A program made the translations under genes and the position numbers. A stretch of 59,111 nt of DNA from Perkinsus marinus ATCC 50983 (Eukaryota; Perkinsozoa; Perkinsida; Perkinsidae): contig NW_003204833.1 of assembly GCF_000006405.1 (NCBI RefSeq), positions 67,221-126,331 of the forward strand, written 5' to 3'. Below the pieces are notes generated by a model. It had not been told where the DNA came from. It searched no databases and saw only the letters and a program-made list of their open reading frames with translations. Of the stretch, positions 2,448-57,826 are shown piece by piece. Every line of letters begins with the position of its first letter. Position 1 is the first letter of the stretch.

Positions 2448-5400
2448 ATGGATACTACCTCCTCTGGCTCGACTAGCAGTCTTTCCTCGTCTGGGGTGCC
2501 TGAGAGGTCAGGAGAACTACCAAGGTGAGCATAGGAAAGAAGCTGTTATACGTTTATCCTCTCTCAGTCTTATTATTAATAAATTAGCGCGTATCACTAT
2601 GTACAGCAATTGACAAGTTTTCATATCAGAATTAGAATATTAATTTTAATTTTCATAATTATAAAATCGTCATACTACTCGCCACATAGTGGGGTAGAGC
2701 CAACATCTAAGGTTCTCTTTATCAGACCACAATCGGCCCTAGTATCTCGTCTGCACTCTCTATTCGTGAGTTTCCAACACCGTGCGGCAGCAGTAACCGC
2801 GATGGCAGAGGATGGTCATGAACTGGAGGTCTCTGACAGGGAACTGGAGGGGTACGCCCTGGGCCTGAAGGCTGCACTGGAAGCGGCTCGTCGAGAGGTA
2901 GAGGTCATCATCATTACTCCAATACTAGTGATAGAACTCAACCAGGTCGAGGATGCATTGGAGGAGTCAGCGTTGTTGGACTGGCCACAAATAGACGCTG
3001 ATTATGAGGCTTTGTGTCGGGCCTTGGCATGTGTGGATATTATTGGCATTTGTTTTGTAAGGAGGGACGTCTATTCGACTGGTAGACTTCGGGCATAGTG
3101 TATGGTAGACTTCGGGCATAGTGTATGGTAGCGAGGTTGTTGCTAGAAATTGTAAACTGAACGCCTTCGAAAGTATGATGCCTTCTTTCGCAAGCCTGAG
3201 TGAGTAACCTGTCATTATTGCAATAGTAAAATTACAGTGCAAAACTGTAGCGTATCTTTGATTATCATAAGCTTCACACATACGCCTCGTAAGCGTAACA
3301 TTTTACGCTGGCACACCTTCGTATGTGTAGATTACGAGTCGCCTCTCGTCTCGACGCATCTCGACTACTGACTGTATGTGCTCATCACGACATGACAGAG
3401 ATACTGAGTAGTATGCGCTAGGATGACTGATCTATATCGCTATTTTGGGGCATAGTGTGAGCATTCTTGTTTATGGGGAAATGTATTCTTTTATGGAACT
3501 CAGAGCTTGTGTGGAGAAATACGCACATGGTCAACTACATGTGTTGGTTGTGAGAAAATTTTGGGGAATTTTGATTGATTTTTGTATGTACATTTCTACG
3601 CGAATTGGTATGATTAGTAAATCCAACTGAGGAAAGGGAACGTATATTTCCTCCAACACTACTTAGTGTTGGGTCCCAGGCATAGACGTGGTTGTAGATA
3701 TCCTCTAGAGCTCACGACTTGCTCATGGGAGAGGACACGGATGAGTCGGAAGAGGAGTTTTGGAAGTGCGTGCAGTTCCTGGCTTGTATGGATATGTCAA
3801 AGCACGTGGCTCTGCTATTAACACAATGGCTGCAAGTGAAGAGTGAAGACTATGAGGCTGATAAAGGGTAGGGAGGAGGAATTATTCAGAGGAGTCAATT
3901 TTACGGTATTTTTTTTATTTTACTAATTTTGCGACCAATATCGGGAAAATAAAATCCTCCAGTTAAGCGTGTTTGGGGAGACTAGTGGAGCTTCGTCGTT
4001 GAAGTTGTGGTACTTGGTAGTGGTCGTCTTGCGCCTTGGGATAGTTTACAGTACGCGAATTTTAAAATGCTAAGTTCTAGTCATTATGCTAATGCACTCA
4101 CCAAATGTTCTTTTCGCAGTTTACAGTGAAACCAGTGTCCCTGCTCTTAACCCTATCTTCAGTCTTGTGAACTGCGCGTACTGTATCGTCTTTTGAATGG
4201 TCGTTTGATCAGACTGTATGAGGACGTGAGGCTTCTGGCCACCTTCTATGCTGATATACCCTCTATGAACGATATCACCACGCACAGCCGGACCGCTGCA
4301 GAGTTTGAGAAGAGGGTAGATAATAGAATGTAAGGAGGCTTGGACAGAAGCGCGGAATCAGTGGTATGGGTAGGAATCTGGCTTACTCTGGTTGGAGTAA
4401 GATATGCAGTATGGGTGAACAGCATGAACAAACGGCGTTTATATGGAGGCTCAACGCTGGCAGTGAGGAGGTGAGCGAAGCGGTGGTAATCGGAAACGCA
4501 TTATTCGGTTTTGGGTACTGCTTGGCTTACAGTGACGTAGTGCAGGGCATGAAAACTTATAATTGCCGAATTGCGGATGAAAAAATAAAAATTATTTTTT
4601 ATCGTTTACACTGATCAAGATGAGTGTCAAACGTTTTATATATATAGGGGAACTTTTCTATCGCCCACCATTCAATTTGAACTTCTCGCGTTTCAGGATG
4701 TGGAGTTCCTCACCAAGAGTATGTGCGAGCTAACCTCGCCCGAGGCAGGGCCAGTGGAGTCGGAAACTGCATGGTAGCATTCTAGTGAGGTATTCGGTCG
4801 TTGAGGGTCGTCGTATAGGTACTTGAAAGTGATACTAGAGTACTTCTGGTTCTACCCAAATCTTAATGTCACCGGAGGCGGCGTGAGCACGATCGTTGAA
4901 TCTGCAGCAAAATTGTTGTCAAATGAGAAGAATGCTGCGGTGAATGTTTTTCTCTATGAAGTTTGTGGTGAATGATTCTCGCTAGGTTACGCCGATGGAC
5001 GTGGTTGTGCATGCGTGCTTAACGGGAGATGTCAACGAGTTGTTGAGCACGCTGTCAGCGGATTGCAAGGAGTAATAGAAGTCTTAGGTGTTGGGATAAG
5101 GCATTATGTTGGTTGCAGATTTGGTGACTCTATGGTGGTGTGCCACATCGTGGATTTACTCTATTATTCGAGTAGTCTGTCGGAGGCTCTTCCAGCAGAG
5201 AGTGATGTAGAACGATACCGAGACGGGTAGTCTGCTCGAGACTTTGCTTCCCTCTTGATCGCGATGGTGGTCTAGTGTTATCGTTCCTTGCTGTTGGTAG
5301 GCACCTGAGTGACTATGTGGCGTTCCTTACTTCCCCCGCCCTACCAAAGGCGCTGGGGTATCGTCTGGCTGAAGACTATACGGCGGCTTTACATGATGAG

Positions 5401-6072
5401 AAACTTTCACGGAGGAAGTTGTCGAAGATACTACTTGAAACTGCAAGTGAGAAATCTTCGCTGTGCGCAGACTGGTGACTTGTTCTTTTTTCAGAGGAGA
5501 TGTGTCCGACTGAGAACGACCTTATGGCGGCTATCAAGAGGAGTTTGGACTATCGTCTTCCCAGTGTGGCACTTGAAATGTGCATGGAACGGTTTGAAGC
5601 TCTGAGTGATACGGACGTGTTGTCGGCTATACGGTGGCTGGAGAGGTCACAAGATGTCTCTGCATCTGGGAAGCCGCTTATTTCTGACTATCTTGATGGT
5701 ATGTCTATGGAGGAAGGTGGAGTTGGGCGCCTGGTAGAAGTATTCAGAGCAGCTAATAGGCTCAACGGTGGAGAGGCAGTGCTGGGTAGGGGGAGGCTGG
5801 GCTTCTATTCAAAGCTGGCTGCGGTGAGGGAACGACCGGAGGGACGGAGGATAGCTGAGCTGATAGTGAGCGATGACTGTCCTCCAGAGGCAGTGTCGGT
5901 GTTGCTGAAGGAATTGGTGAAGTTGGAAAGGTGTGGTATGAATAGTGAAGAAGCTTTGGGGGTGTTGGAGAGGGTTGAGGATAGTGAGCTAGAGGAGGAG
6001 GAAGCTGATCTGGTGGAGTCGATGCTTGTCGAAGTAGTATATGCGACGGGTGGGCGATTCACCTGGAGTTAA
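2448..6072 (+). CDS. NUP85: Nucleoporin NUP85 (Y-complex scaffold), eleven exons
   Basis: Alpha-helical scaffold nucleoporin of the Y (Nup107-160) complex of the nuclear pore. In-frame exons: 2448-2524, 2726-2897, 2946-3056, 3698-3835, 4163-4315, 4697-4773, 4819-4939, 4986-5071, 5119-5226, 5301-5446, 5495-6072, giving 588 aa (human about 656). The whole length follows the family: the N-terminal SRLHSLF segment, EEEFWKCVQFLACMDM, WYLKVILEYFWFYPN, VVVHACLTGDVNELL, MVVCHIVDLLYYSSSL, then LSAIRWLERSQD and RLVEVFRAANRL. The C-terminus (LLKELVKLERCGMNSEEALG) lies where human NUP85 has its crown helices. The start at 2448 gives a short Ser-rich leader before the first helix. The donor at 3836 (GTGAAG) was chosen because it alone keeps phase with exon 5; an extra exon between 3836 and 4162 is possible. 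The intron 3057-3697 carries a copy of the 180-bp TIR element. Confidence 0.85.
3451..3660 (-). mobile_element. TIR element family 1, copy 1 (in NUP85 intron)
   Basis: Reverse copy of the dispersed ~180-bp element (forward is defined by AATATATGTTCGCTTTCC near the left end). It begins near CATAGTGTGAGC and ends GTATATTTCCTCCAACACT. The internal block that reads in forward copies as flank-AATTCGGGTAGAAATGTACA is recognisable as TGTATGTACATTTCTACGCG. It lies wholly within the NUP85 intron 3057-3697. Confidence 0.7.
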
Positions 6073-6200
6073 TTGCTTTCGCTCCGCTAAGCTGAGTTGG
6101 AGAGTTTCGTTGCAGATTATGAAAGTTCAGTCACGAATTCGGGTAGAAGTGTATGAAAACAAATAAGAAATTCCGAAATCTAGTCGGAATTTTCATAGTG
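6068..6200 (+). mobile_element. TIR element family 1, degenerate copy 2
   Basis: Degenerate forward copy overlapping the NUP85 stop codon region. It retains TAAGCTGAG, ACGAATTCGGGTAGAAGTGT and AATTCCGAAAT followed by TTTTCATAGTG. Its termini are eroded, so the ends are approximate. Confidence 0.45.
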
Positions 6201-6608
6201 TAGTTTGCCATGTGCACTGATGATTTTCAGTCCTTCCTCAACTCCACTGCAGTCAGCTCTCCCCATCCAGCCTCCGTTGTTGGCGAGCACACCGATCAGT
6301 GGGTCTTCGTGTGAAGAGATGACGATGACCGTTTCATTATGCTACGTATTAGAGCAGACCGTGTGGTGTTGCGACGTTACTGAATTGGGAGGTTATTGCT
6401 CTAGAAAGCTGCTCCTCAAAGGACTTCGAAATGTAAACCAAAGAAAAGTGTGGGATTATCACAGATAGAAAGAAGATTGTCCGCGCTAATTTCGAGGTCG
6501 GAAATCATCGGGAATTTGTGAAAATAGTAGTTTCGATAGGCATATATGTCCTATCTAGCTCTGAGGTCTTCTTCTTTTCTCTATAGTATAATTAGTGCCT
6601 TCTAATAC
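6201..6608. other. Intergenic, no supported gene
   Basis: Lies between the NUP85 stop and the first helical-repeat gene. One open frame from about 6205 begins after an acceptor-like TTTTCAG and is Ser/Pro-rich for about 35 codons. It has no partner exon or recognisable motif, so it is not called as a gene. Confidence 0.4.
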
Positions 6609-9559
6609 ATGTCTACTACCACTGCTGTGAGACAGAGTCTAAGAGCAATTCCAACCCAGTTGCGGTACACTCGACCGTTTCAAGGCTCGGGTGGCTGCCT
6701 CTACCATATCACTGACGTCCAGGCTTTGGTGGGCGCGGTGCATACGGACTTTTACGACAAAGCTCGGGAGCGTATGTTTGCTAGAGCTCCTGAGCTGATA
6801 CACTTCATGCCAGCGATGCGACCGGGGGAGTTGGGATTGGTCTCTCATCACTTTGCCAAGATGGGCTACAGACAGGAAAGTTTCTGGTAGGATTCTCACG
6901 GCTAGTATTCGTGGCCTCGGCGAGAACTTACTACATGCATTGATTGATGTATATCCTTCCCTGCGCACAGTATTTCCTATACACTGGGGAGGTTAGGAGG
7001 TTCTCTTTCATCACTGTTCTTAGGAAAGAAGTCTCTCGTGTGGTTTTGGAGTATGGCATGGTAGACCCTGTGGCGTGGGATGTTGCTTGTGTTGTAAACG
7101 CCTTCGCGACTATCGACTACTATGATGAGAAAGTGAGCTTTCTGGGAGATAACAGTGTTTATGTGGTATCATTCAGTGCATACTATTCCTAGCAGATCAG
7201 CTGCTCACTGTGGTTGGCACTATAGACCATATCACAATATCAGTGCTGTTGCATGGCTTGGGCAGGCTCAACGAGCCCAGGAAAGGTAATCGTCTTATAG
7301 CCCAGCGTTCTTCGTCCTCTGCACTTGAGTAGATCGAGAGAACTGGTTCTCGTTTAGTGGGCGTATCGCACTCCTACGGAGGGAGCTTGTATACAGTATT
7401 CCTGCTATATCAATTTCTTTGGGGTGGAAGAAATAGTTGAAAATTATTTCATTGATTGACGAAAAAATATTTTCGTTGGTTGGATGAGTCTATATGCATT
7501 GTCCGGAGTGGGAGGTTACCAACGGTCACTTTTCTCGATTGAGGGGTGTCAGTTGGAGAGCACCGAGGGAGAGCATCAACCCGGCTGCCCAAGAAGGCGC
7601 TTGACGCCTTCCTCGATACGTGTGGAGATTGGATATTGGCTAACCGTCGCGAGCTGAGGGTGTGTGCTATGGGACAGTCCATGCAGGGCTTTGCAAAGTT
7701 GAAGTATTATAGAGAAGACCTTTTTACGGTAAGTTCAGAAACTGCTAGGACTATGGGATTCGCTGGCAGGCGCTAGTCGCGGGAGTTCGCGAGATGGCGA
7801 GCGACTTCAACTTGTCTCAGCTGTCTATGGTCATCAATGCTATGGCAAGGAGTCTTACGCATGACTGGGACGCTGTAGGAGGAGGAGAGGGGAAGGGGGG
7901 CAGGGAAGCATCCAGAGACCTATAATGAAGTTTCACTTGTTTCACTACTCCGTGAAGAATGTGGTAGTCGTGAAATATGTTTCTCACTAGTGTTTTTCAT
8001 ATCACTAGGGTGAAACTCCAATGTTCCTGGGGGGAACTCATCTTCGAATTTTCCACATCGTTACGAATACATTCTTAAATCAGTTTCCCATGTAAATGTC
8101 ATCATCGCATTAGGAGCCTTTTTCCCATTGTTTTCAAACTCTGGAGAGCTTTGTTTCTCAAAGTTGGAGGGGTCTGTGTGGGGCGTCGAATTTGAGGTAT
8201 GGCATCATCGTCTCAGGAGGAAGCGATATGTCTAAGGCTTGAGACTATCTTGTCTGAGATGAACGAGTCCGAGTTGCCCGAAGTATCCAATTTTATTGCG
8301 GGAATTCTCACTGCGTTCCTGAGATTGGAAGCGGACTGTAATTTTGTGGCGCGTGACGGATTTGTCACTGCTGTTGGTTAGGCCACCAGACGTTGGAGGA
8401 GAGCATATTGCGGCATCTACCTCGCTTTATGCCTCTGTTGAGCATGACTGATATCGTGCTCACAGTGCCGTCTCTGGCACGGCTGGTTCAAGTGGTCCCC
8501 CATAAGGAGTTCCTAGAGGCAATATTCAATGGCAGATGCAGAGAGTATATCGCTAGCTATGAGAAGGAAGGATTGGGTGGGATAATGCTCACGGCGTGAG
8601 TAGGGATATTTGTGGTGGACTTGAGAGTGCTTGGCTCACGGTCTAGTGAGCTTGATCGTTGAGGTCCCAGGCTTTTCGACTCTCATCCTGGAGATTGAAA
8701 TGCAGTGTGGGGGGAGTATGCACATGGTCTCACCGTGTGTTGGTGACAGTATGACGATTCTGAGGAAATTTTGGAAAATTCTCGTTGGTTTTCGTTACAC
8801 TTCTACGCGTCCTGAGTCGTGCGTATATTTCCGTGATGTAGTGAGGAAGTCTGGGAGTCAGCGGAAGAGAACGAATATATTTCCCAATACATGACGAGTG
8901 TCTTCAGACAGCGGCTTGGGTTTACATATGATGTTGGGTGGTGGGAAGAAGCAGTTGAGCAAGCAATTGCGAAGATAAATGGGGTCCAGTGGAAGGGTCT
9001 AACGACTGCATCTGTGGTCTATGCTGTCGCTAGGTAAGATGATGGAGACTCTCTTGCTTGCCAATGATTTGGTCAGACTGGGAGTGACATCTGAGAACTC
9101 TAACGTTTCCACTGAAGTCCTCACACAATTCAAGAGCATGAGGAAGAGGCTTTTCGAGGGCGTCAGTTCAGCGCTGCCCAGGCAAATCGTTGATTGGTGC
9201 GGCTTCTTATCGTTGTGTGCTGCTGTTGAGGGTATTTGTCGGGGTTGTCTCTCAGGCATCCTAGGGCAGTGACGACGCTATTAACGGCATGTGTGAAGAC
9301 AGATCATTGCGATCCTGAGCTCGCACGAGCACTGTTTGATCGGGCCCATGCAACACTGCACCAGTACAACGCTAAAGATATATCCCAGTTGATTTCGGCG
9401 ATGGGAGTATTCGAAGTGGCTCACGCAAATCTCATCCGCGCCATAGAAGAGCGCTTTGAGACGAGAGCCTTGGTGATGGACCCGGGCCTCGCAGCTGTGT
9501 TCCAGACGGCCTACTCGAGACTAGGTAGAGAGTGGGTGTTTCTGCATCGAAGGAGGTGA
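6609..9559 (+). CDS. Helical-repeat (OPR/HPR/FAST-like) protein, tandem copy 1
   Basis: Multi-exon gene, first member of a tandem pair. Exon 1 (6609 to about 6889) starts with an Arg-rich, acid-free leader suggestive of a mitochondrial presequence. It runs into FARAPELIHFMPAMRPGELG and HHFAKMGYRQESFW and ends at a TG|GTAGGA donor. Later exons carry MQGFAKLKYYREDLF (near 7700), LSQLSMVINAMARSLTHDWD (near 7830), SELPEVSNFIAGILTAFLRL (8260), FEVAHANLIRAIEERF (9400) and NAKDISQLISAMGVF. These are degenerate two-helix repeats of the 'LxxLLxAxAxL' type found in OPR, heptatricopeptide and FASTK-family organelle RNA-binding proteins. The assignment is by pattern only. Every block has a counterpart in the next gene in the same order and, where checked, with the same intron positions. 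Internal exon ends are not all fixed, and the 3' end (stop at 9557-9559) may be extended by a further exon. RNA binding is inference. Confidence 0.6.
7924..8022. mobile_element. TIR element family 2, copy 1 (intronic)
   Basis: A 99-bp element bounded by AATGAAGTTTCAC and GTGAAACTCCAAT, an imperfect 13-bp terminal inverted repeat. A second copy with the same ends is at 51985-52102. It lies in an intron of helical-repeat gene 1, at the position where gene 2 has a tRNA gene. Confidence 0.6.
8339..8359 (+). repeat. Dispersed 20-mer TAATTTYGTGGSGCGYG, copy 1
   Basis: The string TAATTTTGTGGCGCGTGACG lies in the helical-repeat gene 1 exon, where it reads CNFVARD. Close matches occur at three other sites (18701, 18811 and 36335, all on the minus strand). 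Confidence 0.5.
8703..8890 (-). mobile_element. TIR element family 1, copy 3 (intronic)
   Basis: Reverse copy starting CAGTGTGGGGGGAGTATGCACATG and ending near GAATATATTTCCCAATAC. It sits between coding blocks of helical-repeat gene 1, so it is intronic. The left end is the best-preserved 'right' TIR of the family. Confidence 0.65.
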
Positions 9560-9722
9560 CATGAGTTTCTGATGGTTAATGTGCTGTTGTTTATCAATTT
9601 TCGAGGGTTTGACGAGTGGGCCTTTCGGTTAGCTGATTCGGTTCATTTGGCCGGAGAGTTATGGCTGTGCCAGCAGGTTGAAAATGGTAGATCCTATGGT
9701 GAAGAGTTGTGTGGAAAACAAA

Positions 9723-9794
9723 GCCTTCTGCCGGAGTTGAACCGACGACCTCCCGCTTACTAAGCGGGTGCTCTACCAACTAAGCTAAGAAGGC
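9723..9794 (-). tRNA. trnT-AGU: tRNA-Thr (anticodon AGU)
   Basis: A 72-base cloverleaf on the minus strand. The 7-bp acceptor stem GCCTTCT/AGAAGGC is perfect, the D arm is GCTTAGTTGGTAGAGC, and the anticodon arm is CCCGC-TTAGTAA-GCGGG with loop bases 34-36 AGT. The T arm is GTCGG-TTCAACT-CCGGC. Both internal promoter boxes are intact (B box GGTTCAACTCC). A T-rich stretch (TTTGTTTT) follows directly, a plausible Pol III terminator. It is antisense to, and 149 bases upstream of, helical-repeat gene 2. An identical copy is at 11155-11226. Confidence 0.95.
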
Positions 9795-9942
9795 TGTGTT
9801 TTGTTGTCGGAATATTCCTGTTCGTACACGCGAAGCAGATTTTCGTCTTCGCCTCAACGTCTAGGCTACTTATATCTGCTGAATATATCGCAAATCGGGG
9901 CGATTATTATGGATGAGTTACATTGTAGTTTGAATCTCTCTC

Positions 9943-23993: not shown

Positions 23994-24093
23994 ATTTGCT
24001 GATGAATTTATGCACGTTTTCACCATGATCATTGTTCTCTTCGAGTTCGGATGAGGCTCACTATTGCGGTTAGCTCTCTTGCCACCCTTCGTA

Positions 24094-41105: not shown

Positions 41106-44100
41106 ATGGCACGTCGAGGGGCCAAGGGCGAACCGGGACAAGGCGGCCAGGATGAGATAAGCCTCACAGTGGAGTGTTTATTGGAAGAGGCGAAAATCCA
41201 GGGAGAAAAGGAGTTCACTATCAGCCCGTGAGAGGATGTCCGCTTTGCACCTCTGGAGGGCCGTCTCCCTATTGTTAGGAAGTTGCCAGCTAGTCGGCTC
41301 GTGGCGTATGCTCGGGCGCACTTTGGCCTTGCCTACGACCGGGGTTGTTCCCCAGGGTCGATGCCCCGACGGGACTGGCGGCTCGTTCATGTTGGTGGGG
41401 AGAGGGACCAACAGCACGTCCCGAAGAGACTTCCCTCGGTGAGCCCCGGCCCTACTCCTGTTCAGTGGAGTATGCTGTTGTAGGTAAAGGCTGCGGGGAT
41501 AGATGGTGGCGAGCGCTTGAGGCTTGTGTATGTTCAAGACGATGCTGATTCAACTCGCTCGCAGACACCTCAGACGAGCCCTTCTGTGGACAGCTTGGAC
41601 GTCGATGAGAGTCACCACCGGTCTCGGCATCATCGCGGTACTTGGTCTTGTTTGAGTTCACTGTAGTGGGACTGTGTTCAGGAAAGAAGCGACAGCATAA
41701 GCATCACGACTCGCCATCGGAGGCATCATGCCCGGCAGTGGCCGCCGAAATGGAAGATGCTGTTGATGGAGTGTTGGAGGATGGAGTCCCTAGCGGAGGT
41801 GAAGAGGCCAAGGAAAGCCAGAAGCCTGTTGATAACAGTGAGTACCACTCTCTGGCGAACTCATACAAATTGCGTGGGTATGGGAGTATGCAGCCTATAG
41901 CAGAATATTCAGGTGCCAGCGGCCATCCGAAGTCCCGTTCCAAGCGAGCTAAGGTATCCGCCGCTTTGGAGACACCGGTGAGGCGTTCGGCCAGGGTCCG
42001 CGGTATAGAGCCTAACGTACCTGCTGAGCCGGCTAGAGGGCTGCCTATTCGAAGCTCGGGAATGGAGGCTGTTGTTGGTACTGAGGAGAAGGAGGCGGTA
42101 GAGGGAGAAGGTAAGAAGATGTCGTCACCAGGGATCGAACCTGCGCCTGGCATGATGTGCTCTCAGTTACCTCACCGATGGCCGCACCTCAGAAGAGTAT
42201 CGCTAGCAGAGCGGAGGACGTAGGGGGGGATGAGGAGGGGAAGGCTGATGTTGGCAAAGACCCACCGTCGATGAGCTCATCTGTCGGTACGAACTGGAAG
42301 TTGGTTACGGTTTGGTATGTCGTCTCTTCATCGCAGAAGTATCTGAGACCGCAAGTGGTCATATGCCTGTGGAGCCGACATCCTCTGGAAGGGTCAGTGC
42401 TGCTCCGATCGATAGCTCGACAGCAGACGAGGAGGAGGAGAATGAGGAGGAGGTTGTTCATGAGAGCGGAGAACTGAGTCGGACTAGTAACCTGCAGGAC
42501 GCTGTGGAGGATGTTGAAGGTGAAGGGGCGATCGAGTGAATTTTCGGGAACCTGCTAGGGTTTTCCCGATGGTTCGATAGAGAAGTCATAAATGAATATA
42601 ATACCATCTGCGATTCCTGTGGCAACCTAGAAAACACGAGCTACATCTCCTAACGTCCGAATTTCATCTTTCTGTGATGTAAAGCTAACGAGGTGATCGG
42701 ACTATTAGTCCTTCCAGAGGTCTGTGTATGCTGATATTGATCGCACCCGGGTTCAATTCCCAGTGAGGGTATTCGTACATTTGTCACTCTACTACGTTCA
42801 GCTTCCTCCCCCCAGCCGGAAGGGTCATCGGCCAAAGCTCGCGAATCAATTGAGGATGAGGTCTTCACGGATAGCCTTTATGAAGACTTGCCGCCTGTGG
42901 AAGATTGGTTGCTTCAAAGTCCTCATGGTGAGTTGGATGGGGAATAGTGTCTTAACCAGGGATCGAACCCGGGTCCTTTCTCAGTGAAGTTGCGGTATAA
43001 GGCACAGAAGGAGATGCACAGTAATCAGTTCGCCAAGGCAGTCGAGACCTATCGCGAAAGCCTGGCAGCTGCGGATGATGGCACTGGGAGGATCCATTGG
43101 AAACTACTGTACGATTGTAGGTAGTGAACACTGGGGAGGTTAAATTCATGACGTGGCAATGTCAACCATGTGCTGGTGAAATTAGAAAAATTCTGAGAGA
43201 AAAATTCCGTACTATTCGACCGTATGTTTTATAAGTAGTGAGGAAACTCCTGAGCTAGGGTGAAGACAGCGAAGATATATTCCTACTCCAACACCAACGG
43301 CAGGTACCAGATGATCCTATGCTTGTTGGAACTGCAACGATATGATGATTGTGTGGAGGAGGCCAGGACCAACGTGGAGCTGTGTCTGGCCAACATTCAG
43401 GCAGAGGAGGGGGAGAATGCTGACCATCGGAGGCTGAGCGAGGTAGGGCGAGGGGTAGGAGTCGGGTTGTTGAGCATTGTGGCAGGCTCGATCGATGCTG
43501 GGGGACTTCCTACTACTTTCGGGAAGGGTGGAGGAAGCTCAGATGGTGTTGAAGTTGGTGGTCGGCGCTGGCACGTCGGGCGTGCTCCCCAAGTTGTCGT
43601 ATATCGTCAGCCTATGTGGCGGCTTGGAAAGTCCTCAGCCGATCGAGGTGAGTTGGTTCATCCAAGAGTGGATATTGGAGTGGTATCTGCTTCAGACGTG
43701 TCCTCTTGCATTGAGGGAAATGCAGGGGGTAGTGAGAGAACCCAACGAGAGATTGGACCGGGTCGTGAGCCAAGCTAAGACTGGAAATGTGGAGAAGTTC
43801 TCCTCGGCGCTGCGGGTGTTCCTGTTTGATCTCGGCGAGGATTTGCCACTACCGAGAGTGCAGGAGGCCTTATTCCGACTGCTCGGTTCCCAAGCAGGTG
43901 AGCGTGGCTGGGGAGCTGCGGCTAAGGTAAGTCTATATGGTTAACCTTTCGAACGACTGTTTGCCGAACTGTGTCACCTTTCAGTTGATCTGTCAAAGTC
44001 TCCTCTCCTACGAGGTGTATGGGCAACCAGTCTCCGAGCATTTTCGGCCTCAGCTGAAAGCCCTGCTCGGCCGACTCGACGGCTTGGGGCAGCCGCTCAG

Positions 44101-44701: not shown

Positions 44702-46965
44702 ATGACTCGTCGAACGACCGCTGTTGACAGTAAGAGCCCGCTCAGGGTTCACATCCAATGCCGCGAGGGGCTGGCCCAACGAGCTGAGTCGGCGAAGGAG
44801 TTCATAGTAGATGCGTAGGGAGGGCTCATGTTGAGCTGGTGTGATGACAGTGTTGTGATCAGGAGGAGTCGGCCGTGCCAGCTTGTGAATGCCGCTCGGA
44901 GGTACTTCTGCCTCGCTGGGGTCAAGGGCCGCTTTCCAGCGGGGGACTGGAGACTCACGTGGTTGGAAGGAGCGATGGAGGGACAAGACGTGCCTAAGCG
45001 ACGGAGCTCGGTAGGCTACTGAGGCGCTGACCAGAACTGGTATGATGCCCAGGTCGGTGACTGTGGGGTGAAGGATGGAGACCAGCTTGCCCTACGCTTT
45101 GTCGTGAAGGAAATGTCTCCTACGCCCGAGGCCACTTTGGAGTCTGATCTGGGTGGAGGGGAAGAGCCAGTTATTAAGAAGGCGAGGTTGATTGAGGTTG
45201 AACAGAGTGAGGTCATGGCTGATGCGTTCGAGATGCCTGGGGTCTCGCAGGTCAGGCCTCTACGGAGGTGTCAGGGGACGAGGTGCAGCATGAGGGTATC
45301 AAGGGCGAGTTGAAGACTGAAGAAGAGGACATTGAGTGTGAGGAAAGGCAGGGGGGCGTCGACAGATGTGAGCTGAATTGATACCATCTCGGGCAGTGTA
45401 GGAGTATATGTTCGTTTTTTTCCGGCTGAGCTTGGGAGTGCTCTCACTGATTTACAAACGAATAGGGATAGAAATATACAGAAACCAATGAAAATTTCCC
45501 GAAATTTCCTCCCAGAATTTTCAGAGTGTCGTCAACATTTCTGGTTGACCATGTGTATGTTTTCCTGCACTGAGCTTGGGGTGGGCAAATTTGATTGCGG
45601 TGTAGGTCCCCCAGAAGGCCCTAGCGCCACTACTGTTGGCGAGCAATACAAAGCCAGGTAAGCTCAGATCGATTATGGTCGGAAATCTCGCCGATCAGGA
45701 AAACCCTGGCTACTATTCTGACCGAAGTCGGTTGGATGGACAGCGCAGAGGAGACGCATGTCGCCTCGGGTGGGCGTGCTGGGTCAGGAGCCGGGCTGCC
45801 GATCAAGTTGCCCTCTAATACTAGGGTAAACAGCGTGAGAAAATATGAGGTGTTGGGAAAATGGGAAAGTTCTTAGTGGTTGTTGTACACTTCTAACCCA
45901 ATTCGTATATAAGCTCAGCTGAGGAAAGCGAACATATATTCCTACTCCAACACTGATGGTAAACTAGTAGCGAGCTTATGTTGTCAGGATGAGTACAGAG
46001 TGCTCGGAGAAATGCAGCTACTCACCGGCGATGTCGATGGGGCTATTGAGACTTTTGATAAGCTCATTGACCTTGAGGGGCCCGATGGAGTCCGATCACG
46101 TCTGTGCTGTGTCGTGGCCCACTGTGGTGGATTGCTGGCTACTCGGTCTGTTCTGGTAAGCCATCTGTATGGTCTTCCCTCGGGGGGAGTTGGAGAAGGG
46201 AAAACTTATTTAGTTCTACGGAGTAACAGTTAGTATTACATTATAAGTATTCGAAATCGACGATGTCTTGGCGATACGAGGCGAACCGCTGTTGAGAGAA
46301 TGCGGAGTGCCTCTCACTATCGTTGTTCAGGCAAGTGATAGGGCGAAAGCTCTAATCGCGGAACTCGGTGCTCGACATGGCCGTCGGTTCGAAAATATCA
46401 TCGAAGCTGCGCAGAAGGCCGAATCAGAGATTTTCAAGGCGTTGATCGGCAGCCTGCTTGCATCCACTGGAGAGCCTCTGCTCTTACCAGTGGAGCTCGA
46501 GGCTCTCTATGTTGCCCTGGGCCGTCCGAGTCGGATGGGCTGGCGGGCAGCGGCTAAGGTGAGGAACGTGATAGTGATAGAGTGTGTTTATTTTTCGATA
46601 GAGGATATGCACGTTAATCGTGGATGCGACTGAGAATGGCGTGCCTATTGGAAGGCCCTACGAGGGGGTTCTGAAGTCGTTGCAGAAGGAGCTCGATGAG
46701 ACTCGGACTTTCAATGAGTTCAAGGAGAAAATGCAGGTGAGGTGCGACGTTATCGAACTGTAGGGAAATTACGCTGTTTCCGAACGCTATTGTTCATCAG
46801 GCCTGTGTGTAGTACAGACGCAGGCTTGGTCGCTGCTATCAGGTTCTCCTGTCCGCGCCACCCGGGTGCCCGTCGTCGTTCATGGAGTACTCAGTGGAAT
46901 GTAGCCGCCGTTGTCGAAGATTGTTTGATAGCTTTTGCGAGGTCTTGGAGCCTCTGTTGTATTGA
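44702..46965 (+). CDS. TPR-like protein with N-terminal conserved domain, tandem copy Y
   Basis: Paralogue of gene X. ATG 44702 gives MTRRTTAVDSKSPLRVHIQC, then REGLAQRAESAKEFIVDA. A phase-2 intron (GTAGGG...GATCAG) at the position matching gene X leads to SRPCQLVNAARRYFCLAGVK and GDWRLTWLEGAMEGQDVPKR. LALRFVVKEMSPTPEATLES and an acidic stretch follow. VLGEMQLLTGDVDGAIETFD matches the GDFLLLSGRVEEAQMV block of X. EIFKALIGSLLASTGEPLLL with GWRAAAK matches the RGWGAAAK block, and RPYEGVLKSLQKELDETRTF follows. The last exon VLLSAPPGCPSSFMEYSVEC to LEPLLY ends at TGA 46963-46965. Two introns hold TIR elements. The acidic middle is shorter than in X. Function unknown. Confidence 0.6.
45394..45572 (+). 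mobile_element. TIR element family 1, copy 5 (gene Y intron)
   Basis: Forward copy, 179 bases, from CAGTGTAGGAGTATATGTTC to ATGTGTATGTTTTCCTGCACTG. Both TIRs and the core AGAAATATACAGAAACCAAT are clear. Confidence 0.75.
45831..45955 (-). mobile_element. TIR element family 1, copy 6 (internally deleted, gene Y intron)
   Basis: Reverse copy of only 125 bases: CAGCGTGAGAAAATATGAGG to CATATATTCCTACTCCAACACTG. Both ends are kept, part of the middle is lost. Confidence 0.65.
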
Positions 46966-50026: not shown

Positions 50027-51616
50027 ATGTCGGGTACTCCGGTCCTACCATCCTTTCCGGAGTCGGTGGAGAAGGTTGTGGAAGTGCCGCAGAACGCAGT
50101 AGGGAAGGCCATTGGTAAAGGAGGAGACTGTATTAAAAGAATAAGACTGGAGACGGGTGCACGTATTGAGGTGATTGGGAGGGCTTCTGGGGTTCAATCG
50201 TGGAACAGTTAGTGAAAGAATTTCTCGAGAAGTCGATCGAACGTTATTGATACTCTGTTTGTGTTTGTACTGAAGTTATCCTCAATGGGAGCGGTCTGTT
50301 TTAGAGTGTGTCAGCTTTGCATTGACCAGGACGCGCTATGGGAGGTTCTCTGTATCAGTGGTGGAGGAATATATGTTGGCTTTCCTCAGCTGAGCTTGAG
50401 AGTTTTTCTCGCGAATTATAGAAGTTTACATAGGAATTCGGGTAGAAATGTACAGAAACCAATGGGAATTTTCCCAAATTTTCTCAGAAATTTTCATATT
50501 GTCATCAACCATATGTATATTTTCCCACATTGCTGTGCGCATTAGGTTGACCAGAGTAGCAAAGATCAAGGTTTCAGTCGATTCATCGTCACCGGAGCTC
50601 GTGCAGAGCAAGTTGACGTGAGGGAAGCAATAACAATACATAGTAGAAACTATCGTTTATAGAACGCTGTCGAGCAGCTCAACGAGATAATACGCTCGTG
50701 CGAGTCATGTGACTTCCTCCGCCCTGGAGATATCGAGCGCCGTGTTTCTCTGCCGGAGGATAAAGTTGGTGATGTGATAGGGCCTCGCGCGTAAGCTGCG
50801 TAAGTGGTTAATAGAAGGCGTATATGTGTACGTTAAGGTGTGTACTCGATGAGCTCAAGAGGAGGAGTGGATGTCGAATGGATGTTGTGGTTAAAGTCCC
50901 ACCTGGCGAGATGAAGTATGCTCGAATTGTTGGACCACCTGAGGCGGTAAGACTCGTTAATTTTGGAGTTCCTGGGGGGGGGCAATTTTTTATACTCTGG
51001 CTGCGCGTGTGATGATGTTAGTTTGGGTATATGTGGTTACGGTTGTAATGGTAGTGGGAAAATGGAATTAAATCGATAGAATAATAGGATAAAGTGAAAG
51101 AATAAGTTTCGCCAGAATAGACTCTGGAGAAAGTGTGATTTTTTTTGTGAGATTAGTCGAATTTCTGGTTGAGAGAATTTTACGTTTTCCCCCTATCCTC
51201 AGTGCACCATCGGCGCTTTCCTGGTTAATGAAGTTATCCAAGGGAATTTCGATGTTGGTGGGGTCATTCGGCAATACTCGGAGAGAACCGGGCAAGTCCT
51301 GTTCGATCCGAACCATGATATGCGAAGAAAAGGCGGTGGCGGCTTTTCGGGAGGCAAAGGGAACAACTTCGGCACTCCTGAGAGATACGATGATATGAGC
51401 GGAGCGATGAATTTTAGAGGAAAGGGCTTTGGTGGCCGTTTTGATAGTCCTCCACAAGATCAATGGAGTAGACGTCGTGAAAATGAGGGCAGAAATTGGC
51501 AAAGTACACTTCCTCCTGCTCCTACTGCTCCACCAGCATCATACGGCTCTTATGGAGTGGAAAAAACAGCTGCTGCTGGTGGTGGTGCTGGTTATGGGTT
51601 GATGAATTCCAAGTAG
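50027..51616 (+). CDS. KH-domain RNA-binding protein with Gly/Arg-rich tail
   Basis: Multi-exon gene. The first KH domain starts soon after ATG 50027: VEKVVEVPQNAVGKAIGKGG with the GxxG loop at G30-G33, then DCIKRIRLETGARIEV. A second KH-like stretch follows introns: RFIVTGARAEQV, LNEIIRSCESCDFLRPGDIE, VSLPEDKVGDVIG, LDELKRRSGCRMDVVVKVPP. After an intron near 50950-51200 come TIGAFLVNEVIQGNFDVGGV and a Gly/Arg-rich tail (KGGGGFSGGKGNN, GFGGRFDS), stopping at TAG 51614-51616. KH proteins bind single-stranded RNA; the RG-rich tail is usual in such regulators. It may be continuous by alternative splicing with the next KH block, which has no clear start of its own. A TIR element lies in intron 1-2. 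Confidence 0.65.
50356..50535 (+). mobile_element. TIR element family 1, copy 7 (KH gene intron)
   Basis: Forward copy, 180 bases, CAGTGGTGGAGGAATATATG to CATATGTATATTTTCCCACATTGCTG. The most typical core: TTACATAGGAATTCGGGTAG, AAATGTACAGAAACCAATGG and TTTTCATATTGTCATCAACC. Confidence 0.8.
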
Positions 51617-51717
51617 GAAAAATTGGGAAAATCGAAATTTGAATTTCGCGCTGGCGGTCTTTTTGTTTGATACATAGGAAACGCCCAGTTGATCGATTTG
51701 TAGTATCTTTTTTTCAG

Positions 51718-53064: not shown

Positions 53065-53178
53065 ACTGGTCGTCGCTCCTCGCAATGGTATGATGTACGT
53101 TTTCTGGTAACGACTAGAGCTTGTTGCGTTACAGAAGTCCGCGGAAATTCCCATTAGTTTTGTTTTTAAACATTTTCT

Positions 53179-55730
53179 ATGTTATCTGTTGCCTCGCCGA
53201 TCTTGAGGCTGTCGGCCTTGTCATCGGTCGGTACTTTATGGAGGCCTCTGGTCTCTCGGTGCTTGTCTACTGCTTCCTCTCGAACGAGTTATAGTGTTAC
53301 GACGGAGGGGCACACGCTGACCGAAAAGTACCGGGTCTTCCTGACTGACCCTGCAAAGGGTGTGGTGTCTCCATGGCACGATGTGACAAGTTTGCACGCA
53401 TGCACAAAGTTGTGTGGAGGATGTTGAGCAGGTGCCATTGTGGTCTCGGGCGAAGGAAGGCGGTTTGTACTGCAATTATGTCGCGGAAATACAACGTGGA
53501 ATGCGGGCTAAGTTTGAGGTAGTATCATCGGGGAGAAGGTTTGGTAGACTTTGGCCTCAACACGTTAGGAAGATGTATTAAAATGTATCGATTTTATGGT
53601 GGAATTATCTCGTCTTGAATGTTCCTATATGTGTATAGGAGTTATTAGGTAGCCACTAAAGAGGTTCATAACCCGATAAGGCAGGACAGAAGGAGTGATG
53701 GCAGGTTGCGGTATTACGGCAAGGAACCGAGCTTTAACTACGGGGCGCTACCACAGGTAGAAGGGACAGGTGGTTGATATGTTGAAGTGAAGAATGTGCG
53801 TTTTGTCTTCCGGGGTGAACAACTTGTCGCTATCATAGTCTCGAAAGCTTACTTTCATCACATCACATGTTCATATCACTTTTCATATCGATTCTTATTA
53901 ATCTCGGAAAATAATACATATTACCACACACTACTCGGCTGTTGGCATTAACGTTACAGTCTGACGTTCTCTTCACCTTTTCTCTGGTCGGTCGGATTAT
54001 CACCATAAACGATCTTAGTAAGGGAATTGGTAATATGATCACACCGCTGTCTCAGACGTGGGAGGATCCATCTGTACAAGATGAGGAGACGAAGCTGTAT
54101 GGAGATAGAGATCCTCTGGACCTTGTCGAACTTGGGGACAGGCCTATCCCGACAGGTACTGTTGCTGAAGTCAAGGTGATAGGGGTTGCTGATGGGCTTT
54201 CGGGGGGAGAATACACTACTGTCTCCTGATTCTTACTGTGTGTCGTGATGATCAATAGTTGTAGATTGGGTTATTAACGGAGGTTCGGGATATCATCAAA
54301 AGATCTAACAGGCGCAGGTTCAATACCGGGGGTCGGACACGTGCAAAAAAGTGCCATGAAAATTTTTCCGAAAATCGATTGACGACAGGTTCCATGCAAT
54401 ATAAGAGGGGCTTATATTCAAAATTTTAGCTTTGGAATCGCCCCGTAGGAAAAGTTACCTCTGCACATGTTTTTTCGGTCTCTAGATGGCACGTTGAAAA
54501 TCGTGGAAGGTTTCACGAAGTAGCGAGGGAGTTCCTGAGCTCAGCTGAGGAATCAAGCATTTTTTTAACACTGAACGGTGCTCAGGTGCTGGGTTGCTTC
54601 TGCCTACTTGATCAAGGCGAGGTGGATTGGAAGGTCTTGGCGATCAACACCGATGATGTAGTGTTCGAACGCCTCTCTTACGGTGTGGTTTCGGTCAAAT
54701 AAGATCCATAAAATCTCGTGTTTTGTTTTTAAAACTCATGTATATTCAACTTTTATATGTGGAGGTATGAGTGCTGCCAAAAAAATGTTCGCTTTCCTCA
54801 TGTGCGTTCAATATTTTCCTAACTTACCATAGGAGTTTATATACGAATTGGAAAAATTCACGAGGAGTGAACAGAAGCTAACAAGAATTTTCCCAGAGTC
54901 TTGATATTGCCACCAACACATGTGCATATTCTACCACACTGAGGGGTATGGGGGAGCGGTGAGTTTGCGTCCTGATGGGCGTCTCCTCTTGCTGGGTAGC
55001 GAGAAGGGGTTCGACATGGGCACATGTTTTAAATCATCCGCCTGAGGTGACGATTCTATGGCGTTTTTAGGCGATGAGTGAACGGATTAATTCACTCGAC
55101 GATTTGGCTCGATACATGCCAGGACGAGCGGAAGAGGTTATGCACTGGTTTCGGACCTATAAGGTATCTTTGATGAGAGAACCTAAGATATTCTTCTGAG
55201 TGAGGTTGATATTTAGATGCTGGAGGGCAAGCCTGAAAACGAAATAGGATATGGCGGGCGCCTGTTACCGTTGGAAAAAGCGGAAAAGGTTATTACCAGT
55301 GCACATGTAAGTTTCGCGGGCAGTATTGTTATGTATTATTGCAGTATTAAGTATCATAAGTAGTTGTAGTATAGTTAAGTATTGCAGTACTATTAGCAGT
55401 ATATACATGGCATTATATGTTCGCTTGCCTCCGCCGAGTTTGGAAGTTTCCTCATGAGTTTATATGCAAACTAGGGTAGGAGTGTACAAAAACCGATGAG
55501 AATTCACCGCAATTTTCTCAGATTTTTCATATTCTCACCAGCACATGTAGTTGACCACGTCACATAGTATGTGTGCATATTTTCCCCCCACACTGGTGTT
55601 TGGATAGAAATGTTATATTGGAATTGTCCCACGATTTTACATTTACCGTTAATATTCTCAGAAACAGTGGGAGAAGCTCATTGTGGAAGTCGGCGCGAAG
55701 GAGTATTGGGTGCCGCGTACAAAGAAGTGA
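53179..55730 (+). CDS. Inorganic pyrophosphatase, mitochondrial type, eight exons
   Basis: Hydrolyses pyrophosphate to two phosphates; family I soluble enzyme. Exons, all phase 0: 53179-53382, 53432-53518, 53649-53756, 54056-54184, 54586-54657, 55071-55163, 55217-55306, 55662-55730, giving 283 aa. The first 35 residues (LRLSALSSVGTLWRPLVSRC) are Arg/Ser-rich without acids, a typical mitochondrial presequence. The catalytic core reads KYRVFL, SPWHDVPLW, EVHNPIRQD, FNYGALPQTWEDP, GDRDPLDLVELG (metal-binding DxDPxD signature complete) and GVLGCFCLLDQGEVDWKVLA. The end is HWFRTYKMLEGKPENEIGYG and KQWEKLI. The acceptor at 53431 was chosen because it gives WHDVPLW, matching the yeast enzyme. Introns hold two TIR elements and one B-box sequence. 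Confidence 0.93.
54317..54327 (+). other. Intronic tRNA B-box/T-arm-like sequence 5
   Basis: GGTTCAATACC within GGCGCAGGTTCAATACCGGG, in pyrophosphatase intron 54185-54585. Confidence 0.6.
54770..54941 (+). mobile_element. TIR element family 1, copy 8 (pyrophosphatase intron)
   Basis: Forward copy in intron 54658-55070. Core ATGTTCGCTTTCCTCATG, right end CATGTGCATATTCTACCACACTG. The left TIR is diverged, so the start is approximate. Confidence 0.65.
55397..55595 (+). mobile_element. TIR element family 1, copy 9 (pyrophosphatase intron)
   Basis: Forward copy in intron 55307-55661. CAGTATATACATGGCATTAT leads into ATGTTCGCTTGCCTCC; right end TGTGCATATTTTCCCCCCACACTG. Contains an extra repeat of ACCACGTCACATAGTATGTG near the right end. 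Confidence 0.65.
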
Positions 55731-56540
55731 TTCAAAAATTCGGAGTTCCTATGTTTCTGCTGTCAATCCGATTCAGAGTTCATCACTTTCTTGACTGTCG
55801 GGTGTAGTTGTAGGGAGTGGAGACATGGTGACACAATTTGCCATTGTGTCACTAGCTCATTTATGCCAGAACACATAATAGGTTGCCAATAGGCTCGAAA
55901 CCTGTATGGGGCAGTTGTTCCACTACTCTCTGCTTAGGGTATGTGATCCTCTTACATTACGGACGATCAGCAGGGGACGAACTTGTTCAACGATTGCCAC
56001 GTTCATTTTTGCAGTGCATGGTGCTGCCTGATACCGTCGATCAGTGTGGTCAACGGTATGTGTTGGTGACGATATGGAAAATTTGAGGAAAATCTCAGAA
56101 GAGCCATGTCGATTCTGGAAATTTCTACCCGAATTCTTATCAGGAATCACATACCTAGTGAGAAAACTTGTAAGCTCAGTTGAGGAAAGGGAACATATAT
56201 TCCTCGAACACTGCGGCCTAGCCTGAATTCATATCGCAGGATGACTCACGTAGTAACCCTTCTGAGCTTACTATAGGCGCATGGATCCTCTATGTGTGGG
56301 ATCGTGCGGACGAATCCCTTGCTTTGATTGCAGTCAGACACATGGTTCGGTACCGCACTATGAAGAATTCTACTTACCTCGTAGAGGGCGACTTATAGAG
56401 AGTAAAAGTAGAGTGTCAGTAGAGTAAAAGCTCTCATCCTTACATAGTTCGGGGAATGATTTTTGCCATGATATTGCAGATGGCGGGTGCATTCACTCTA
56501 GTCGATTCATGACTGTTTTTTAACATGAGCTGCAACATCA
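55731..56540. other. Intergenic; holds one TIR element
   Basis: No supported gene. Apart from TIR copy 10 and a direct repeat AGAGTAAAAG at 56399-56430, nothing was recognised. Confidence 0.4.
56042..56213 (-). mobile_element. TIR element family 1, copy 10
   Basis: Reverse copy, 172 bases, with both ends intact: CAGTGTGGTCAACGGTATGT and ACATATATTCCTCGAACACTG. No target-site duplication is evident in the flanks (CGTCGAT / CGGCCTA). Confidence 0.75.
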
Positions 56541-57082
56541 ATGCTGTTGAAATTGGCCAGATCCCTTCTTGCGTCTGTTCACGCTTCGCGTTGGTCTCAA
56601 GCAACGCCGGAATTTCACCGCTGCGTTCTGTTGCCGGCCGATGCGCTGTTCGTTGCAGTGCGTGCCACCTCGCAGCTTGACAAGCGCAGTGACTTACATT
56701 CCTCCTAGTGAGTTGACCTCAGCCTGTAAGAAGAGTAGTTGTCTCCTCTCACACGTGTAATGTTGGCGACACTTGCGGCACGCTTGGCCGAGGATTTACA
56801 CTCGTACATCGACGAAAGAATACAGGAGCTTATCAAACTGGCAGAGCAACAGGACAGACTCATCGCGGATCTAGCTCGGAAAGCCAGGCAGGAAAAGATG
56901 GAGTCAGCGCAGGTCCGTCATCACTTGTGACAGTCCCTGGTCACTGTGGTGGTCCTCAGAAGACTCTACCGGTTGTGGAGTCGAGTCGATCACAGCAAGC
57001 GGCTACTGATGTACGGTTGCCTTCTTACAAGGAGTTCTTAGGTGCGGCGTTTGTGGTAGCGGCATCATTGATGTTCCCTTAG
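56541..57082 (+). CDS. Small protein with coiled coil and C-terminal hydrophobic segment
   Basis: ATG 56541 opens LLKLARSLLASVHASRWSQA, an Arg-containing amphipathic leader like a mitochondrial presequence, and HRCVLLPADALFVAVRATSQ. After an intron near 56708 comes a helical, probably coiled-coil segment LAARLAEDLHSYIDERIQEL, KLAEQQDRLIADLARKARQE. The last exon, after ...GTCCTCAG at about 56960, is TLPVVESSRSQQAATDVRLP and a hydrophobic end FLGAAFVVAASLMF with TAG 57080-57082. The donor before the last exon is GTCCGT, which is weak. No family recognised. Inner mitochondrial membrane is a guess. Confidence 0.45.
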
Positions 57083-57084
57083 CA

Positions 57085-57826
57085 ATGACTGGCAGCCCCA
57101 TAGGAGGCGGATCGCCAGCCTACGGTGTAGAGTTAACTCCTCTCCGTCCTTACTCCAAGCGGTGCCGCGACAGTGTTGGTCAAGGCGCAGTCGATGAGAA
57201 GTCCGCAGAACACAAGTAGGTCGAATGCAGTATACTGGACCAGTGTTTGGAAATATATGTTTGCTTTTCTGAGCTGAGCTTAAGAGTTGCTCCACTAAGC
57301 ATAAGAGTTTACATGTGAATTTGGGAAGGAATTTACAGCAGTCAATGAGAATTTCCCGAAATTCCCCTCAGTCTTTCCATATTGTCATCAACATTTTTGC
57401 ATATTCATGCTGCAATGGACTACCCCCTCTTGTGATAGAGAATCCCACGCCTCGACGTTGAGCCCACACACACCAACACGGCCGCTGATTTTCGATGTTG
57501 ATGCGGAAGTGGTTGAAGTCGACAGCTCTCCAAGAGACTCTGAGTGAGGATGCAAGGCAACTACTCTACAGTTTTTGGTCAGCATACAACGTCCACCGAA
57601 GCGACCCAAGATTCCCACCGAACGCCGAGGGACTCCTACTAGAGCTGTGAGCCGACGAGACTTATCCTCTGTGATGGTTTCGCTCAGCCTCTCAAACCAA
57701 TCGATGAGCCGAACGTCTCTCCCCCAGAGAGTGTGGTGAACACGCATCGTGCAACAGTGCCTGATCTTACCCGCCCTGAGGAAAGGCCTAATGAGCGTGC
57801 AGTGGTGAGAAGCACATCATCTATGG
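57085..57826 (+). CDS. Possible disordered protein
   Basis: ATG 57085 gives TGSPIGGGSPAYGVELTPLR, YSKRCRDSVGQGAVDEKSAE and a GTAGG donor. Past a TIR element, frames with coding-like composition resume: PKIPTERRGTPTRAVSRRD (about 57600) and AQPLKPIDEPNVSPPESVVN, then TRPEERPNERAV before a GTGAGA donor (57807). Pro/Arg-rich and probably disordered. Exon joins are not fixed. The start lies 3 bases after the previous stop, so the two could instead be one gene. Confidence 0.3.
57241..57415 (+). mobile_element. TIR element family 1, copy 11
   Basis: Forward copy, CAGTGTTTGGAAATATATGT to TTGCATATTCATGCTGCAAT. Both flanks read GGAC, a possible 4-bp target-site duplication. Confidence 0.7.

What the first reader, a model, noticed from the sequence alone, without database searches (positions are those of the whole stretch)
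3451..57415. A ~180-bp inverted-repeat element occurs at least 11 times in 59 kb, mostly inside introns
Copies at 3451, 6068, 8703, 43122, 45394, 45831, 50356, 54770, 55397, 56042 and 57241 share a core (ATGTTCGCTTTCCTCAGCTGAG ... GGGTAGAAATGTACAGAAACC ... TTTTCATATTGTCATCAAC) and ends CAGTGT...ACACTG. They occur in both orientations. At least eight lie within introns whose boundaries are fixed by conserved protein sequence (NUP85, KH gene, pyrophosphatase twice, paralogues X and Y). Such a short, TIR-bounded, non-coding, numerous element is a MITE. The intron bias could mean purifying selection against exon hits, or that the element itself creates introns (an 'introner'). Introners are established in some algae and dinoflagellates; whether this family is one is inference. 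Against it, the splice sites seen here lie outside the TIRs. Copy 4 comes closest: its end lies 7 bases from the 3' splice site.
Basis: partly seen in the sequence, partly recalled or inferred. Interest (0 to 1): 0.78.

Follow-up and report, generated by a model that had tools for sequence, protein, structure and literature searches.

The report
Ordinary transposon family inside protist introns
The repeated 180-base element is a real family of small, non-coding jumping genes, thousands of copies strong, in the genome of a protist that looks like the oyster parasite Perkinsus; where it could be checked it mostly landed in introns that already existed rather than making new ones, so it is a new member of a well-known kind.

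Summary
In detail: all 11 copies are real, and a 12th partial copy lies at 54513-54565. The consensus is 188 bp with CAGTGT...ACACTG ends. The genome (54.5 Mb, Perkinsus-like by its spliced leader) holds roughly 5,000-9,000 copies by extrapolation. Copies are flanked by 8-bp target-site duplications (53% identity against 27.5% shuffled). With the CAG start and hAT transposase domains elsewhere in the genome, this suggests a hAT-type MITE; no autonomous partner was found.

The introner idea is not supported. In seven introns whose boundaries I could fix, six leave 29-232 bp of non-element intron, as random insertion into existing introns predicts. Six kinase paralogues carry the same intron at about 35-165 bp by coordinates; the one read (119 bp) keeps splice sites and phase and has no element. 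In tandem paralogues X and Y, each element-bearing intron has an element-free counterpart of 41-43 bp at matching position and phase (firm for one pair, weaker for the other).

One intron (X1, 43121-43303) is just the element plus 9 bp, so intron creation by a rare copy is not excluded. Some copies carry satellite-like tandem arrays of their 5' end.

The parts
3507..3661 (-). element copy, in a putative intron of the NUP85-like gene (splice sites by motif only)
   Evidence: nhmmer E 6.5e-21; sequence read; homology of the joined protein not confirmed
6058..6236 (+). element copy with eroded ends, in a putative ~200-bp intron (about 6050-6251, motif only)
   Evidence: nhmmer E 1.2e-21; sequence read
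8703..8892 (-). element copy, in a putative intron (about 8597-8907, motif only)
   Evidence: nhmmer E 2e-25; sequence read
43122..43295 (-). element copy in intron X1 of gene X; fills the intron
   Evidence: nhmmer E 4.9e-17; geometry
43121..43303 (+). intron X1 (183 bp, phase 2, GTAGTG...CAG)
   Evidence: joined reading frame; paralogous Y1 is 41 bp without the element
43443..43485 (+). intron X2 (43 bp, phase 0), no element; counterpart of Y2
45391..45572 (+). element copy upstream of the Y exons read; gene context not resolved
   Evidence: nhmmer E 9.4e-39; flanking 8-mers match 6/8
45658..45698 (+). intron Y1 (41 bp, phase 2), no trace of the element
45831..45955 (-). element copy in intron Y2; flanks AGGGTAAA / ATGGTAAA (6/8, read by eye)
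   Evidence: nhmmer E 1.4e-20; sequence
45826..45987 (+). intron Y2 (162 bp, phase 0)
   Evidence: joined frame and paralogue X2
50356..50532 (+). element copy, best-scoring in the window (it is also one row of the profile), in the KH-gene intron
   Evidence: nhmmer E 5.2e-50; identity to consensus 90%
50171..50554 (+). KH-gene intron (384 bp)
   Evidence: joined frame; same donor and a similar acceptor in the syntenic paralogue L050, 271 bp, no profile hit
54513..54565 (-). 12th, partial copy (model 13-66), inside pyrophosphatase intron 54176-54585
   Evidence: nhmmer E 1.1e-6; intron
54769..54941 (+). element copy; flanks GGAGGTAT / AGGGGTAT (6/8)
   Evidence: nhmmer E 1.4e-22
54658..55070 (+). 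pyrophosphatase intron e (413 bp) holding that copy
   Evidence: spliced protein aligns without gap across the junction to a solved pyrophosphatase, best E 7.9e-56
55397..55595 (+). element copy
   Evidence: nhmmer E 4.4e-37; ends
55307..55661 (+). pyrophosphatase intron g (355 bp) holding that copy
56042..56213 (-). element copy; gene context not resolved
   Evidence: nhmmer E 8e-30
57241..57415 (+). element copy (aligned part 57250-57409); gene context not resolved
   Evidence: nhmmer E 2.2e-34

Best explanation
A high-copy, non-autonomous hAT-type MITE family. A hAT transposase made elsewhere in the genome (inferred) recognises the CAGTG ends, moves the ~188-bp element and leaves 8-bp target-site duplications (duplications shown). 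Copies landed without strong target choice (inferred). Those in introns that already existed were tolerated and lengthened them; hits in exons were presumably lost to selection (inferred). The copies in hand are mostly old: median 85% identity to the consensus. A subset carries tandem arrays of the 5' 56-64 bp end.
For: Profile hits and consensus ends. 8-bp duplication: 53.1% identity against 27.5% shuffled, none of 2000 shuffles as high, 24 copies; the next best register is 6 bp with P 0.04. 12 of 24 match at 5 or more of 8 positions where about 1 is expected. 1,601 places genome-wide with a 26-nt segment at up to 2 mismatches, backwards control 0. hAT dimerisation domain at 19 places, open frames up to 850 aa; 0 of 14 control genomes, though those named are prokaryotes. 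Seven fixed element-bearing introns (five in the window, plus L023 and L026): size left over 1, 29, 41, 148, 199, 223, 232 bp (mean 125), against a length-weighted expectation of about 150 from 10 element-free introns (P of a mean at least this large 0.74, at most this large 0.26); positions within the intron compatible with uniform (P 0.55). Same-position introns without the element: six kinase paralogues, about 35-165 bp by coordinates, the method giving back 492-495 bp for the known one; one of the six read, 119 bp, same donor, acceptor and phase, no profile hit at E 10. X2 against Y2 and Y1 against X1.
Against: No autonomous element with the same ends was found: the one hAT locus read (L049) has no copy of the ends. 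Half of the 24 copies match at fewer than 5 of 8 target positions, so some ends are misplaced or old. X1 fits intron creation better than insertion plus deletion on its geometry alone. The C21 paralogue of the KH intron lacks the element but keeps TATCAGTGTGG at the matching place, so it may be a deleted rather than a never-occupied site. The sample is small (7 and 10 introns), and the introns were not a random draw: they are those whose genes I could read. Five of the six kinase paralogue introns were not read.
Confidence: 0.85

Rival explanations
1. Introner: the element inserts into exons and is spliced out as a new intron, using splice signals in its ends or in the 8-bp duplication.
For: Intron X1 is 183 bp = 1 + 174 + 8 bp around the element; its flanks ATTGTAGG / ACGGCAGG (5/8, read by eye) would supply AG|G on both sides. 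Intact CAGTG ends carry GT (CA|GTG). Published introners include TIR/TSD-bearing, MITE-like families with splice sites taken from the duplication (PMC9860276, passages). 15 of 49 copies have a GT/GC...AG pair at matching offsets against 13.8% of random positions, an excess (binomial P 0.002).
Against: Only 1 of 7 fixed introns has that geometry. The excess of 15 of 49 is to be expected, because the TIR always supplies GT; with an open joined reading frame it is 3 of 49 against 3.6% at random (binomial P 0.26), and one of the three (L023) lies on the strand opposite to the SNW gene there. That scan did not catch X1, whose ends are eroded. Introns at the same position exist without the element; Y1 shows no remnant (P 0.56).
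Confidence: 0.07
2. A MITE of another superfamily with 8-bp duplications (Merlin, P, Zisupton; sizes recalled).
For: A Merlin-type DDE domain is matched at 4 places, 3 over the cut-off. P-type Galileo elements are known for tandem repeats in their ends (PMC4168063, passages).
Against: The CAG start and the weak nYnnnnRn pattern of the duplications fit hAT (recalled consensus CAG / nTnnnnAn); hAT domains are the more numerous, 19 places. KDZ and P-type RNaseH gave 0 hits, but those searches rang in no control genome either, so absence is not shown.
Confidence: 0.12
3. Segmental duplication or chance similarity rather than mobility.
For: Some copies are shared by duplicated segments (C301/C237, L009/L019, L023/L024, L026/L030, L008/L011).
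Against: 24 copies with distinct flanks show a common 8-bp duplication signal; 835 forward and 766 reverse places, control 0.
Confidence: 0.01

Closest known systems
hAT-derived MITEs (e.g. Mar and BuT2 derivatives in Drosophila, BniHAT in Brassica)
   Same: Short, non-coding, short TIRs, 8-bp duplications, often high copy number and in or near genes (PMC3942097, passages; PMC3517528 and PMC7385995 seen only in a search listing).
   Different: Perkinsus-like host; tandem arrays of the 5' end; autonomous partner not identified. The sequences themselves were not compared.
TIR/TSD introners (Gozashti et al. 2022, PMC9860276, passages seen)
   Same: MITE-like ends, target duplications, many intronic copies; one intron (X1) with the right geometry.
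   Different: The intron exists in paralogues without the element; 11 of 14 splice sites in the seven fixed introns lie 22-185 bp away from the element ends.
Amoebophrya introner elements (PMC7789003, passages seen)
   Same: Related alveolate host; inverted repeats in introns.
   Different: Those have 3-5 nt direct repeats at the exon/intron boundaries and mostly non-canonical introns; here 8-bp duplications, and GT-AG in all seven element-bearing introns fixed.
Galileo (P superfamily) with tandem repeats in its TIRs (PMC4168063, passages seen)
   Same: Tandem expansion inside an element end.
   Different: Much longer element with ~140-bp units in one copy; here the unit is the outermost ~52 bp plus a few bases, repeated head to tail.

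Membership tests
MITE | short, non-coding, many copies | tested here: met
   188-bp consensus; 1,601 genome places with one 26-nt segment, array units included
MITE | terminal inverted repeats | tested here: met
   consensus begins CAGTGT and ends ACACTG; beyond six bases the repeat is imperfect
MITE | target-site duplication of fixed length | tested here: met
   8 bp stands out
MITE | autonomous relative sharing the ends | tested here: inconclusive
   one hAT locus read, no shared ends; 18 of 19 not read
hAT superfamily | 8-bp duplications | tested here: met
hAT superfamily | short TIR starting CAG (recalled) | tested here: met
   CAGTGT
hAT superfamily | hAT transposase acting on these ends | tested here: inconclusive
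   19 hAT-domain places in the genome; link to these ends not shown
Introner | splice sites lie in or next to the element so that the intron is the element | tested here: not met
   1 of 7 fixed introns
Introner | homologous genes without the element lack the intron | tested here: not met
   kinase paralogues and X2/Y2 keep the intron without the element

The most novel reading that the evidence does not exclude
Although most insertions are ordinary, a small minority of this hAT MITE's insertions make introns at once: landing after AGG, the element's first base gives AG|GC (later AG|GT), and the copied AG at the other side gives the acceptor. X1 would be one such intron, and its paralogue Y1 a shrunken remnant. 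That would be a non-specialised MITE acting as an occasional introner in a lineage at the base of the dinoflagellates.
Probability: 0.07. Interest if true: 0.6.

Novelty: new member of a known kind. Interest (0 to 1): 0.3.

Why it matters
It tests a tempting reading. A dense, partly intronic MITE family in a lineage next to introner-bearing dinoflagellates turns out, where it can be checked, to be mostly insertion into existing introns, shown by element-free introns in paralogues. It also accounts for part of the length of introns that are several times longer than the usual ~50 bp in this genome.

Tried and rejected
Coding-potential scoring (codon log-odds) to place exons next to copies: too weak at 90 bp. 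Pfam scans of 132 and 75 open frames near copies led to the SNW and kinase genes used here; the other families listed were not followed to an intron. NUP85-like joined protein: no relative in the Protein Data Bank at E 1, so the three putative introns at 3-9 kb were left out of the intron statistics; so was the pyrophosphatase intron with the partial copy (410 bp). hAT locus L049: no matching ends. Viral contigs: no exact match to a 24-nt segment. The 59-bp tandem array at 27016 looks unrelated to the element (no profile hit there). Duplicated segment C237 as an empty site: rejected, because its pyrophosphatase introns have nearly the same lengths (49, 128, 308, 406, 410, 53, 358 bp from the coordinates, computed, against 49, 130, 299, 410, 413, 53, 355), so the copies there are probably shared; the KH copy is shared too (L002). 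C21 KH intron: no element, but perhaps a deleted copy. Rows dropped: in the duplication count only copies over 60 bits with both ends recognisable were kept, 27 rows, of which 3 were dropped as duplicates; one kept row (L003) has an array, not host DNA, on its left. Duplicate loci (L001, L002, L010, L019, L024, L030) were left out of one count or another, as the scripts say.
Full report
Observation. A profile built from 30 genome loci (one of them the window's own 50356 copy, a few duplicates of each other) finds the 11 reported copies in the window (E 5.2e-50 to 4.9e-17) and one more partial copy at 54513-54565; the reversed sequence has no hit below E = 2.7. The consensus is 188 bp, CAGTGTTGGAGGAATATATG...GTGCATATTTTCCCACACTG. 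Copies are in both orientations, six and six.

Genome and host. The window is part of a 54.46-Mb, 347-contig genome. I therefore take the host to be Perkinsus-like; no species name was available.

Copy number. A 26-nt segment occurs at 1,601 places with up to 2 mismatches, control 0; this includes units of tandem arrays. The same pattern catches 3 of the 12 window copies and 4 places in the fetched sample. For the sample I asked for 20 stretches at fixed positions and got 17, three of them all N; 105,837 bases are readable. By my count of the table it holds 16 separate copies above 40 bits, array units left out; its reversed control gave 0. Both routes give roughly 5,000-9,000 copies. This is an extrapolation, and many of the sampled contigs are short. 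In the window the copies are clustered: the 34-kb gap from 8.9 to 43.1 kb has P = 0.0004 under uniform placement.

Mobility and class. In 24 copies with usable ends, the bases outside the ends match best in an 8-bp register (53.1% against 27.5% when partners are shuffled; none of 2000 shuffles as high). Of registers 2-12 only 6 bp is otherwise below 0.05 (31% against 25%, P 0.04). Twelve of 24 match at 5 or more of 8 (about 1 expected). With the CAG start this points to hAT (the hAT end and target consensus are recalled; 8-bp duplications and 10-25 bp TIRs are stated in PMC3942097, passages). hAT dimerisation domains occur at 19 places in this genome and in 0 of 14 control genomes, which seem to be prokaryotes. 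Merlin-type domains are matched at 4. KDZ and P-type domains gave none, but rang in no control either. One hAT locus of 19 was read and lacks these ends, so the autonomous partner is inferred. Fifty-two copies have a median 85% identity to the consensus (72-96%); apart from one pair of duplicated segments (L008/L011) the closest pair is 89%. I saw no sign of recent activity in these copies.

Introns. Splice models were fixed for pyrophosphatase (seven introns; the spliced protein aligns to solved pyrophosphatases, best E 7.9e-56, and in that alignment without gaps at the junctions of the two introns holding full copies), SNW/SKIP in L023 (E 5.7e-37, one residue gap next to the junction in question), RPL32, KH and kinase (L026) genes by open joined frames, and the tandem paralogues X and Y. 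Seven introns with a full copy are 162-495 bp long. Ten without one are 41-299 bp, median 53.5; published Perkinsus introns run from 39 to 1622 bp, most under 100 (PMC3101222, passages). Taking away the element and one duplication leaves 1, 29, 41, 148, 199, 223 and 232 bp (mean 125). Random insertion in proportion to intron length predicts a mean of about 150 (95% range 75-238), and the position inside the intron is compatible with uniform (P 0.55). These are small numbers and a convenience sample.

Introns without the element. The kinase intron holding a copy (495 bp, on C347 and its duplicate on C118) has counterparts at the same place in six further paralogues: 43, 43, 35-44, 54-60, 119 and 129-165 bp by coordinate arithmetic that returns 492-495 for the known case. 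I read one, the 119-bp one: AAT|GTAAGC...CTAG|GTA as in the occupied gene, and no profile hit at E 10. In the tandem pair, Y2 (162 bp, with element) corresponds to X2 (43 bp, without), both phase 0, next to a firmly homologous exon (alignment score 71, maximum of 2000 shuffles 55). X1 (183 bp, with element) corresponds to Y1 (41 bp, without), both phase 2. That match is weaker: local alignment of the flanking exons is not significant (P about 0.2); anchored at the intron it is 0.001. Y1 shows no trace of the element (P 0.56). The syntenic KH intron on C21 is 271 bp with the same donor, a similar acceptor and no profile hit, but TATCAGTGTGG at the matching place may be a remnant. The C237 duplicate shares the window's pyrophosphatase copies, judged by intron length.

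What is left of the introner idea. X1 is one base, the element and 8 bp, the geometry of some published introners (PMC9860276, passages). In 49 copies, 15 have matching GT/GC and AG offsets where 13.8% of random positions do, an excess (P 0.002), but the TIR always supplies GT; with an open joined frame it is 3 of 49 against 3.6% at random (P 0.26). So intron creation is at most rare.

Arrays. Several copies carry head-to-tail repeats of their first ~52 bp: 15.9 copies of 64 bp in L045, 6.9 of 56 bp in L048, which is part of the array in L003, about 59-bp spacing in L008, L011 and L014, 56 in L015. In the six loci read the array is followed by a long or full copy. The junction TTTCCTATACAGTG recurs at different loci (read by eye), so array-bearing copies probably move as well. 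In L011 the flanks of the whole array plus element match at 6 of 8 (read by eye).

Verdict. A new family of a known kind: a hAT-type MITE, mostly old in the copies seen, which in the cases that could be checked mostly sits in introns that exist without it.

Noticed in passing
G000: C39:787/7075, C70:333740/339414, C74:354960/360683, C137:228637/234585, C176:50419/56039, C233:257647/262723, C281:253118/259410, C132:169696/175510, C221:73497/79800: The spliced-leader exon sequence occurs in nine same-strand pairs 5.1-6.3 kb apart (of 34 places; two further pairs are 1.5 and 9.6 kb apart). Seven of the nine intervals hold a same-strand integrase-core match in an open frame of 476-1642 aa; two of the seven are over the family's cut-off, five below it (E 6.5e-8 to 2.1e-4). 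This looks like an LTR retrotransposon family with the host's spliced leader in each LTR. Coordinates only; one literature search (12 of 122 papers listed) showed no title on this.
   Followed up: partly
L045:4555-5571, L003 (with L048:113-497), L008, L011, L014, L015: Tandem arrays (period about 56, 59 or 64 bp) built from the 5' end of the element, in these six loci followed by a long or full copy: perhaps a satellite being born from a MITE end.
   Followed up: partly
window 42500-59111; C237:54652-80390; C21:396225-404934: Two duplicated, collinear segments: C237 (well-placed exons 83-98% identical) seems to share the copies tested; C21 (66-96% DNA identity in pieces) lacks the KH-intron copy.
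   Followed up: partly
window 27016-27601: 59-bp tandem array, open in three frames on +; it looks unrelated to the element.
   Followed up: no
window 9721-9795 and 11153-11227: Two identical tRNA-Thr (AGT) genes 1.4 kb apart.
   Followed up: no
window 8892-43122: 34 kb without any copy, although the rest of the window has 12; P = 0.0004 under uniform placement.
   Followed up: no
L023, reverse strand 1283-1336: A GC-AG intron (GCACGT...TAG, 54 bp) in the SNW gene, its splice supported by the aligned protein.
   Followed up: no
G000:C25:229346, C172:14153, C254:148911; C79/C157/C333: hAT-domain open frames of 725-850 aa, and three places with equal scores and frame lengths: possible partners of the MITE. 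Only the C25 one was read.
   Followed up: partly
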